NCBI GenBank assembly: GCA_030429235.1
Contig: JAUIDB010000008.1
Location: 62,001-126,000 of the forward strand
From: Thermoanaerobaculia bacterium
GTDB taxonomy: Bacteria > Acidobacteriota > Thermoanaerobaculia > Multivoradales > JAIOJS01
Length of the DNA stretch: 64,000 nucleotides
Direction of reading: 5' to 3'
In this document: piece after piece, positions 26,584 to 30,776 of the stretch
Layout: the number at the start of each line of letters is the position of its first letter
Position numbering within the stretch: position 1 is the stretch's first letter
Program-made: the position numbers and the translations under genes
The notes under the pieces: model-generated
Seen by the model: only the letters and a program-made list of their open reading frames with translations
The model's database searches: none
Told to the model about the DNA's origin: nothing

Positions 26584-26587
<4 letters not shown>
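25547..26587 (-). CDS. folP: Dihydropteroate synthase
   Basis: A 346-residue enzyme of folate synthesis joining p-aminobenzoate to dihydropterin pyrophosphate. Family motifs are [81 protein letters not shown] and [11 protein letters not shown]. About 60 extra N-terminal residues precede the barrel; the GTG 26587 start (GTGA overlap with ftsH) is supported by the overlap, though a shorter start is possible. Confidence 0.95.
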
Positions 26588-28527
<1,940 letters not shown>

Positions 28528-28717: not shown

Positions 28718-29233
28718 TCAATCGTCGAGATAACCGACGTAGGGCAGCCCTCCGTAGCGGCCCTCGAACTTCATCCCGTAGCCGACCAGTCGTTTGGTGC
28801 GCTCGGTGGTGAAGACCCCGTAGTCGACCTGAAAGTGCACGGTTCGCTCCTTGGGCAGATCGACCAGCGCGATGGTCTGGACCTTGCTCGCTCCCATCGC
28901 CAGGAACTGGCTGCGAAGGTAGGTCTCGATCACGGCACTACTCACCACGTCCTTGACCACCAGCAGGTGTTGACCCTCGACGTCGATCGGCACGGGATAG
29001 CTGAGTTCGACGGGACTCTCGGAGCCCTCCTCGTGGTGATCGACCTGTAGAAACTCATACCGCAAGGGAGTGCCGATGGCGCGTACGAGATCGGCGAGGA
29101 AGATCACCGAGCCCCCGAGAACCGAGAGGATCAGGGGATCGTTCGGGGCCACCTCGCGTTGGAGCTGTTGACCCAGGTCGCGAACACGATTGCTCAGGGT
29201 CCTGGCGTCGAACAGCTCTTTGATGTTTGGCAT
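28718..29233 (-). CDS. Hypoxanthine phosphoribosyltransferase-like protein with degenerate active site
   Basis: A 171-residue protein whose position (tilS-hpt-ftsH) and C-terminal fold (KRLVGYGMKFEGRYGGLPYVGYL) mark it as an HPRT homologue. The active site is not conserved. The PRPP loop usually read as VEDIIDTG is VKDVVSSA here, losing the Glu and the general-base Asp. Loop I LKGS/LRGS is LGGS, and the flexible SSYG loop is DHHEEGSES. It is thus probably not an active HPRT. In Bacillus, HprT with TilS was reported to activate ftsH; a purely regulatory role here is inference. Confidence 0.8.
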   Translation of the reverse strand: MPNIKELFDARTLSNRVRDLGQQLQREVAPNDPLILSVLGGSVIFLADLVRAIGTPLRYEFLQVDHHEEGSESPVELSYPVPIDVEGQHLLVVKDVVSSAVIETYLRSQFLAMGASKVQTIALVDLPKERTVHFQVDYGVFTTERTKRLVGYGMKFEGRYGGLPYVGYLDD

Positions 29234-29248: not shown

Positions 29249-30688
29249 CTAGAACTCCTCGCGGTCGGCGGCGCCCTCCAGTCGGACGACCCAGGCGCTT
29301 CGATCCTCGGGTCGGAGTCGGTACTGATCGTTGATGGTAACACCCGGCACCCAAACCAGCGTCTCCTCGAGGAAGAGAAGTGGCAGCCGATCCCGCTCGA
29401 GCCGGGGGACCTTGCGATCGATGAGAAGGTCCTTCAGTCGTTTCGGGTGGGCCGACCCCAAAGGGCGGATACGGTCTCCAGGCCGGCGGGTTCGCACCGT
29501 GAAGGCTCGGCCAGGGAGGATCCGTGGGGAAAGAGCGGCACGGCGCGGTGAGCCGGTACGCATCCAGGCCGCCACCGGTTGCGACTCGAAGACGAGGGTC
29601 TGATCGAGAGTCGGGAGCGGCATCCGGAAGGTAGCCCCGGCCCGAGAAGGCCAGGCTCCGTGATAGCTCGTCCCGACCGGCTCGTCGGTCTGCGGCCGCA
29701 GGATCAAGCGATCGCCGTGCGTCTCCCAGAGCAGCGAGCCGCCGGCCGAGGTGCGGAAGCCCTGGTCTCCGGGGCGCTCCAGGAGTCGCGCCAGTTCTCG
29801 AGCCGCCCCGGCCGGGGCCGGATAGCGGTGTCCATGGGCTCGATGGAGGAGCGCCAGGGCCCAGGGAACGAGGGGTCGGGGCAGGCTCCGCAGCTCGTCG
29901 AGGGGCAGACTGGGTCCGTAGTCCGAAGGGGTCAGGGGAAGTTCCCGGCCCAGGACTCGACGGATGTGGTCCGTGGCGGCCTGGGCCGCCGCGGCCAGAG
30001 CGAGGAGTCGGTGGTGGTCGCCGGGAGCGAGCGCCGGCATCAGGTGGTGGCGAATCGCGTTGCGACGCAACCGGTGGTCCCGATTCGTCGGATCCTGACT
30101 GGGACCCAGCTGGTCCGAAGCCCCCAGCTCCTTCAGGGCAGCGACGATCTGCGCGCGCCGCAACGGCAGGAGGGGGCGCACGATGCCGCGAGCTGATCGG
30201 GCCCGCATCGCGCCCAGACCGGCGAGTCCCGAGCCGTAGAGGAGTCGGAGGCACACCGTCTCGGCCTGGTCGTCGGCGTGGTGCCCGGTGGCGACGACGT
30301 CGGCACCGACGTCCTCGGCGAGACGGAGGAGGAAGGCATAGCGCTGGTCCCGAGCGTCCGCTTCGGCGCCGCGGCTCGGTTCGTCCGTCTGGCGAACTCC
30401 GGGAGCCTGCGCCAGGTGGCAGGTGACTCGGAGTCTCTGGGTGAGGTGGCGGGCATGTGCGGCACGCGACGCGGAGCCAGCGTCCAGGTGGTGGTCGAAG
30501 TGTGCTGCCTCGACGGAGAGACCACAGCGCTCTCGGATTGCGACCAGACCCGTCAACAACGCCAAGGAGTCTGGACCGCCGGAGAAGGCGACCAGGATCC
30601 TCTGAGGGGGGTCGAAGAAGGCCTCGAGGGTCTCGACGAGGAGTGCGGCCGAAGGGCCGATGGTGGCGGTGACGGGACTTGAACCCAT
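29249..30688 (-). CDS. tilS: tRNA(Ile)-lysidine synthase; start codon inside tRNA gene
   Basis: A 479-residue N-type PP-loop ATPase that puts lysidine on C34 of tRNA-Ile(CAU). The PP-loop is ILVAFSGGPDSLALL, with HFDHHLDAGS, ATGHHADDQAETVCLRLLYGSGLAGLGAM and PLLPLRRAQI following; the C-terminal domain has RTRRPGDRIRPLG and KRLKDLLIDRKVPRLERDRLPLL. The only ATG/GTG/TTG before the PP-loop in frame is ATG 30688, which lies within the tRNA gene at 30661-30737. The next possible initiation would be at a non-standard codon such as ATC 30661. Ends 15 bases before hpt. Confidence 0.9.
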   Translation of the reverse strand: MGSSPVTATIGPSAALLVETLEAFFDPPQRILVAFSGGPDSLALLTGLVAIRERCGLSVEAAHFDHHLDAGSASRAAHARHLTQRLRVTCHLAQAPGVRQTDEPSRGAEADARDQRYAFLLRLAEDVGADVVATGHHADDQAETVCLRLLYGSGLAGLGAMRARSARGIVRPLLPLRRAQIVAALKELGASDQLGPSQDPTNRDHRLRRNAIRHHLMPALAPGDHHRLLALAAAAQAATDHIRRVLGRELPLTPSDYGPSLPLDELRSLPRPLVPWALALLHRAHGHRYPAPAGAARELARLLERPGDQGFRTSAGGSLLWETHGDRLILRPQTDEPVGTSYHGAWPSRAGATFRMPLPTLDQTLVFESQPVAAWMRTGSPRRAALSPRILPGRAFTVRTRRPGDRIRPLGSAHPKRLKDLLIDRKVPRLERDRLPLLFLEETLVWVPGVTINDQYRLRPEDRSAWVVRLEGAADREEF

Positions 30689-30737
30689 GACCTAACGGTT
30701 ATGAGCCGTTCGCTCTAACCAACTGAGCTACACCGCC
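30661..30737 (-). tRNA. tRNA with CAU anticodon (elongator Met, or Ile2), CCA encoded
   Basis: Cloverleaf read on the minus strand: acceptor GGCGGTG/CACCGCC, D-stem GCTC/GAGC with loop AGTTGGTTA, anticodon stem AACGG/CCGTT around loop CTCATAA (anticodon CAT), variable AGGTC, T-arm ATGGG-TTCAAGT-CCCGT, discriminator A, then a genomically encoded CCA at 30661-30663. Elongator Met is the default call; tRNA-Ile2 (lysidine-modified, the TilS substrate) has the same anticodon and cannot be excluded. It overlaps the 5' end of tilS. Confidence 0.93.
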
Positions 30738-30747
30738 CGGACGGGCA

Positions 30748-30776
30748 AAGATATCCTGTGCCCAGCCTGGAATCAA
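30748..30776 (-). promoter_or_regulatory. Promoter of the tRNA(CAU)-tilS unit
   Basis: On the minus strand TTGATT (30776-30771), a 17-base spacer and TATCTT (30753-30748) end 10 bases before the mature tRNA 5' end, so transcription would begin a few bases upstream of the tRNA. Confidence 0.65.

What the first reader, a model, noticed from the sequence alone, without database searches (positions are those of the whole stretch)
30661..30737. tilS has its only ordinary start codon inside a CAU tRNA gene
The tRNA and tilS are on the same strand behind one promoter (30748-30776). In the tilS frame the sole ATG/GTG/TTG before the PP-loop is ATG 30688, in the variable/T-arm part of the tRNA. Processing the transcript to mature tRNA would remove that start. 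So one RNA may be either tRNA or tilS mRNA, or tilS starts at a non-standard codon (ATC 30661) after cleavage. TilS modifies CAU-anticodon tRNA-Ile, so if this tRNA is Ile2 the enzyme would be coupled to its substrate.
Basis: partly seen in the sequence, partly recalled or inferred. Interest (0 to 1): 0.75.

Follow-up and report, generated by a model that had tools for sequence, protein, structure and literature searches.

The report
tRNA-Met gene abuts or overlaps tilS
In this acidobacterium the only usual start codon of an essential tRNA-editing enzyme (TilS) lies inside the neighbouring methionine tRNA gene; comparison shows that tRNA-then-enzyme abutment, without a ribosome-binding site, recurs across the phylum, so the cell must somehow make both a tRNA and a protein from overlapping sequence.

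Summary
A CAU tRNA (30661-30737, -) sits directly upstream of tilS behind a tRNA-type promoter. In the tilS frame the only ATG/GTG/TTG before the PP-loop is ATG 30686-30688, in the T-stem of the tRNA. The one congener held is the same, so this is not a sequencing error. Three corrections. (1) The tRNA is elongator tRNA-Met, not Ile2: a separate Ile2-like gene exists elsewhere, so TilS is linked to the CAU tRNA it must reject. (2) ATC 30661 begins with the last A of CCA, so it does not survive cleavage after CCA. (3) The linkage is not local. It occurs throughout the order, in most sampled Acidobacteriota, and in scattered other phyla. There tilS often starts 4-20 nt past CCA without a Shine-Dalgarno motif (1/35 have one; 36/48 next genes do), resembling mitochondrial tRNA punctuation. 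The window's genus is an extreme case with no standard start left downstream; three other genomes also lack one. Best reading: TilS is made at low level from unprocessed tRNA-Met transcript, starting at AUG 30688 (or AUC 30661), so each RNA is either tRNA or TilS message. Which start is used is unproven.

The parts
30771..30776 (-). -35-like hexamer TTGATT of the tRNA promoter
   Evidence: read directly; TTGCTT at the same spacing in congener G001
30748..30753 (-). -10-like hexamer TATCTT; predicted transcript start only a few nt before the tRNA 5' end
   Evidence: identical in G001 within the conserved stretch
30661..30737 (-). elongator tRNA-Met (CAU) gene with encoded CCA; only elongator Met gene found in the genome
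30686..30688 (-). ATG in the T-stem of the tRNA, in frame with tilS; only ATG/GTG/TTG before the PP-loop
30659..30661 (-). ATC in the tilS frame; its A is the final A of CCA; candidate non-standard start, 72 nt before the reference point of the PP-loop, inside the usual 69-84 nt of most relatives
30646..30660 (-). 15-nt trailer TCGGCCCTTCGGCCG identical in the congener; folds as a 5-bp hairpin (CGGCC-CTTC-GGCCG), no T-run after it
30566..30583 (-). PP-loop motif SGGPDS of TilS
   Evidence: SGG and DS invariant in alignment A1
29249..30688 (-). tilS reading frame from the in-tRNA ATG (479 aa)
28718..29233 (-). hpt-like gene (hypoxanthine phosphoribosyltransferase family, below the equivalog cut-off), next downstream, with a Shine-Dalgarno motif
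26584..28527 (-). ftsH, following hpt

Best explanation
One promoter makes a precursor RNA that begins just before elongator tRNA-Met and runs into tilS (and probably hpt and ftsH). Across Acidobacteriota tilS is commonly placed directly behind this tRNA and translated without a Shine-Dalgarno sequence. In most relatives the start codon lies shortly beyond CCA, so tRNA excision would leave a leaderless or short-leader tilS message. In the window's genus no standard start remains outside the tRNA, so TilS is most likely made at low level from precursor molecules that escape tRNA processing, starting at AUG 30688 in the T-stem (AUC 30661 is the rival start). A given RNA then yields either mature tRNA-Met or TilS. 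Shown: anatomy, linkage, lack of SD, lack of a standard downstream start in two species. Inferred: co-transcription, use of the precursor, which codon starts.
For: No ATG/GTG/TTG between the tRNA end and the PP-loop in both species of the genus. tilS and the elongator tRNA-Met are each single in the genome, so both products must come from this locus. Among 11 class genomes whose tRNA carries this ATG, the 7 in which it is in the tilS frame have no in-frame ATG downstream, versus 3 of 4 with one where it is out of frame (Fisher p 0.024); over all junctions 0/8 with an in-frame in-tRNA ATG have a downstream ATG versus 42/64 without, genus g3 left out (p 5e-4); within the order 0/6 versus 14/31 (p 0.065). 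SD motif before the first tilS start in 11/68, in 1/35 when the start is within 20 nt of the tRNA, against 36/48 for the next gene and 33/45 window ORFs (control motifs 22-24 of 45). Near-unbroken conservation from the -10 through the tRNA to +15 in the two species, then divergence.
Against: No RNA or protein data. The ATG is dictated by tRNA sequence and also occurs out of frame in four genomes, so it may be chance. Five other genera with the in-frame ATG also have a usable GTG/TTG downstream. Three other genomes (G037, G012, G067) lack any standard start, even in the tRNA, so non-standard starts may be what matters. The counts are small, related genomes are not independent, and the test was made after looking at the data. 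A structured T-stem without an SD is a poor initiation site.
Confidence: 0.45

Rival explanations
1. TilS starts at a non-standard codon at or just beyond the tRNA 3' end (AUC 30661 first), at the same place as the standard starts of relatives.
For: AUC 30661 is 72 nt from the PP-loop reference, inside the cluster of 69-84 nt for most of 35 near-tRNA starts; G304 (L290) has ATG at exactly this position; G037 and G012 have no standard start at all but ATC/ATT within 20 nt of the tRNA end; the 15 nt after CCA are conserved in the genus.
Against: No SD; from general knowledge AUC is a very weak start and leaderless initiation favours AUG/GUG. Its A belongs to CCA, so a cut after CCA destroys it (a cut before CCA, with CCA re-added, would not). 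G067 lacks even near-cognate codons near its tRNA.
Confidence: 0.25
2. A second promoter inside the tRNA gene makes a separate, near-leaderless tilS transcript starting close to AUG 30688, so tRNA and mRNA come from different RNAs.
For: CATAAC of the anticodon loop lies 9 nt before the ATG and resembles a -10 (4/6, read); E. coli metY-nusA-infB has an internal promoter at the 3' side of its tRNA gene (PMC6511841).
Against: The hexamer is fixed by tRNA function and has no good -35; the scan found no promoter-like site at its threshold.
Confidence: 0.15
3. Ordinary tRNA-mRNA operon: the tRNA is excised and TilS is made from the remaining mRNA from a poorly matching codon well inside the downstream region; nothing special happens at the tRNA.
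For: Most relatives have a downstream GTG/ATG/TTG; E. coli metY-nusA-infB releases its tRNA by RNase III.
Against: In the window the only near-cognate codons left beyond the junction are AGG, ATC and CTG at +59 to +65, directly at the PP-loop strand.
Confidence: 0.12
4. Artefact: a base error or frameshift hides a normal start.
For: Possible in draft assemblies in general, for instance in G067 (about 400 contigs, 5% contamination).
Against: Two species of the genus share the layout; the G000 assembly is rated 100% complete and 0% contaminated; the frame is intact.
Confidence: 0.03

Closest known systems
E. coli metY-rimP-nusA-infB operon
   Same: A CAU tRNA gene (initiator tRNA2-fMet) heads an operon of translation-related proteins; the tRNA is excised from the shared transcript; an internal promoter lies at the 3' side of metY (PMC6511841).
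   Different: Initiator rather than elongator tRNA; metY is one of several initiator genes and not essential. Here the tRNA is the only elongator Met gene found and no standard start of the next gene lies outside it.
Mitochondrial tRNA punctuation
   Same: tRNA excision defines the 5' end of the next mRNA, which is leaderless or nearly so (general knowledge). About half of the junctions scored here have the matching anatomy: start within 20 nt past CCA and no SD.
   Different: Processing is not shown here; a single locus, not a genome-wide principle; in the window the start itself overlaps the tRNA.
Bacterial RNase Z that cuts after encoded CCA (Thermotoga maritima)
   Same: Such an enzyme could free tRNA-Met in one step and leave a tilS mRNA beginning right after CCA (PMC7479834).
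   Different: No processing data for this organism; RNase Z-like matches in the genome stay below the curated cut-off.
Standard tilS (TilS of E. coli, Geobacillus)
   Same: Both TilS domains are recognised.
   Different: Start context and overlap with the tRNA.

Membership tests
TilS (tRNA-Ile lysidine synthetase) | TilS N-terminal PP-loop domain and C-terminal domain over curated cut-offs | tested here: met
   TIGR02432 154.5 (cut-off 93.6), TIGR02433 59.1 (cut-off 20.2)
tRNA-Ile2 (CAU, TilS substrate) | C4:G69 and C5:G68 acceptor pairs used by E. coli TilS | tested here: not met
   Linked tRNA has G4:C69, G5:C68 (sequence; determinants from PMC12514573). Identity elements vary between species, so this alone is not decisive.
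tRNA-Ile2 (CAU, TilS substrate) | No other Ile2 candidate in the genome | tested here: not met
   Another CAU tRNA (G000:C70) is 82% identical to E. coli ileX and 69% to metT/metU and is conserved in the order (39 of 40 genomes have a match)
Elongator tRNA-Met | CAU anticodon, not initiator-type, the CAU tRNA left once Ile2 and initiator are assigned | tested here: met
   Three CAU tRNAs in the genome: the linked one, an Ile2-like one, and an initiator starting CGCGGGG. Raw identity of the linked one to E. coli ileX and metT is equal (74%), so the call rests on elimination and the acceptor stem
tRNA-mRNA co-transcribed operon | tRNA and protein gene on one strand behind one promoter, no terminator between | tested here: met
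   Anatomy only; the terminator scan found none
tRNA-mRNA co-transcribed operon | One RNA spanning both genes | not testable with these tools
   needs RNA data
Leaderless or tRNA-punctuated mRNA | Start codon at or within a few nt of the processed 5' end, no SD | tested here: inconclusive
   Anatomy fits 34 of 68 junctions with a standard start (within 20 nt and without SD); in the window the start would lie upstream of the cut; processing not observed

The most novel reading that the evidence does not exclude
A bacterial transcript that is read either as a single-copy tRNA or as the mRNA of the tRNA-modifying enzyme TilS, whose start codon lies inside the mature tRNA, so that tRNA maturation and TilS synthesis exclude each other on each molecule and tRNA-Met processing capacity sets the TilS level; with a phylum-wide tRNA-punctuated tilS as its background.
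Probability: 0.4. Interest if true: 0.8.

Novelty: new variant of a known kind. Interest (0 to 1): 0.6.

Why it matters
tRNA-mRNA operons are known, but here two products that the cell should need, each from one gene, overlap or abut so tightly that ordinary processing and ordinary initiation conflict. It gives a directly testable case for whether bacteria use tRNA excision to define mRNA 5' ends and whether a ribosome can start inside a tRNA sequence. The linked tRNA is the very CAU tRNA that TilS must leave alone, so the linkage might balance methionine (AUG) and isoleucine (AUA) decoding. It also warns annotators: the true TilS N-terminus is uncertain across Acidobacteriota.

Tried and rejected
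Ile2 coupling: rejected. ATC after cleavage at CCA: rejected on sequence, since its A is part of CCA (a cut before CCA would allow it). Sequencing error or frameshift: rejected because the congener shares the junction. Family-level sampling gave only two genomes. A class-wide pattern search for more tRNAs carrying the ATG was meant as an independent test of the in-frame effect, but all 11 genomes were already in the sample, so the effect remains post hoc. Trailer hairpin as terminator: rejected, no T-run. Literature searches for a described tRNA-Met/tilS overlap or bacterial tRNA punctuation found no matching report in the open library; this does not show absence elsewhere. One pattern search and one paper search failed on syntax.

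Full report
What is there. The window holds one tRNA, CAU, at 30661-30737 on the minus strand, the best-scoring tRNA of its genome. Directly downstream on the same strand is tilS, followed by hpt and ftsH. In the tilS frame a stop lies within the tRNA, then GTC ATG; this ATG (30686-30688) is the only ATG/GTG/TTG before the PP-loop and forms the first bases of the T-stem. A TTGATT-17-TATCTT promoter ends 10 bases before the tRNA. The congener G001 keeps TTGCTT-17-TATCTT at the same place. From TATCTTTGCCCGTCCG through the tRNA to 15 nt past CCA (TCGGCCCTTCGGCCG, a 5-bp hairpin without T-run) the two species differ only at two bases of the anticodon stem, which pair with each other; beyond it the sequences diverge.

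Which tRNA. The genome has three CAU tRNAs. One is initiator-type. One (G000:C70) is 82% identical to E. coli ileX and 69% to metT/metU, and 39 of 40 relatives have a match to it. The linked one is therefore elongator Met by elimination; its acceptor pairs 4:69 and 5:68 are G:C, not the C:G pairs that E. coli TilS reads (PMC12514573). Its overall identity to E. coli ileX and metT is equal, so identity alone does not decide. TilS enzymes largely refuse tRNA-Met. The linkage is thus of TilS with its forbidden look-alike, not its substrate.

How widespread. The organism belongs to Acidobacteriota (inferred): order member G008 matches the named contig CALMKX010000084 (uncultured Acidobacteria) in length and junction. 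Of 29 other order loci first fetched, 28 have a CAU tRNA upstream of tilS on the same strand. Of 56 loci from outside the order but within the phylum, 36 do, 16 do not, and 4 could not be scored by my motif; these were mostly chosen from the better-scoring matches, so the fraction is a rough guide. Among 80 named loci of many phyla the linkage appears in few outside Acidobacteriota: two Calditrichota and one KSB1 (initiator and elongator Met in tandem) and one Atribacteria.

How tilS starts. I collected 73 distinct junctions with the PP-loop within 160 nt of the tRNA. In 68 a standard start exists after the tRNA; in 35 of these it lies within 20 nt, four times as ATG at exactly +5, and once (L290) as ATG using the A of CCA. 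The window genome uses such motifs in general (33 of 45 ORFs against 22-24 for control motifs). So tilS in this phylum is typically begun without SD right behind a tRNA, an anatomy that suits a leaderless or short-leader message made by tRNA excision. RNase Z of Thermotoga can cut just after an encoded CCA (PMC7479834), but nothing is known for this organism.

The window's special case. Five junctions lack a standard start between tRNA and PP-loop: the window, its congener, G037, G012 and G067. In the first two the tRNA ATG is available; in the others nothing standard is. In the window the near-cognate codons are ATC at 30661 and AGG/ATC/CTG at the PP-loop strand itself. ATC 30661 is at the usual distance from the PP-loop (72 nt; most near starts 69-84 nt) but its A is part of CCA. 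ATG 30688 would add nine residues. Genomes with an in-frame ATG inside the tRNA never have an in-frame ATG downstream (0 of 8, against 42 of 64 with genus g3 left out; among genomes with this same ATG, 0 of 7 in frame against 3 of 4 out of frame, p 0.024; within the order p 0.065). This suggests that the in-tRNA ATG can stand in as start, but the numbers are small, not corrected for relatedness, and were examined after the fact.

Verdict. Shown: the overlap, its presence in two species, elongator-Met identity by elimination, the wide linkage, and SD-less starts. Inferred: co-transcription, processing, and the actual start. I favour translation of TilS from unprocessed precursor starting at AUG 30688 (0.45), then AUC 30661 or another non-standard start at the junction (0.25), an internal promoter in the tRNA (0.15), and an ordinary excised-mRNA scheme with a far downstream start (0.12). 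The closest known case is the E. coli metY-nusA-infB operon (PMC6511841). I found no paper describing this junction in the library searched.

Noticed in passing
L027 (G037), L207 (G012), L223 (G067): tilS frames with no ATG/GTG/TTG between the upstream stop and the PP-loop, not even inside the tRNA; in L223 the frame is open about 370 nt upstream without any standard start.
   Followed up: partly
L124, L167, L176: In Calditrichota and KSB1 contigs an initiator tRNA and an elongator tRNA-Met stand in tandem directly upstream of tilS.
   Followed up: partly
L290 (G304): tilS ATG that uses the last A of the tRNA CCA (CCATGTCCATGG), with a second ATG 6 nt later.
   Followed up: no
L217, L221, L223-L226: In one subclade of genus g3 the tilS frame stays open through the whole tRNA gene and about 300-370 nt upstream, which will invite misannotation as an N-terminal extension.
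   Followed up: no
L028, L029, L031 and other genus g3 loci: TilS matches end early (open frames often about 377 aa), suggesting the shorter form that lacks the second C-terminal domain, while the window's TilS is full length.
   Followed up: no
L006, L018, L019, L211 (tRNA-Met): tRNA-Met copies with a U50-U64 mismatch in the T-stem where the ATG arises.
   Followed up: no
L213 (G020:C171): A second tilS-like gene in G020 without a linked tRNA.
   Followed up: no
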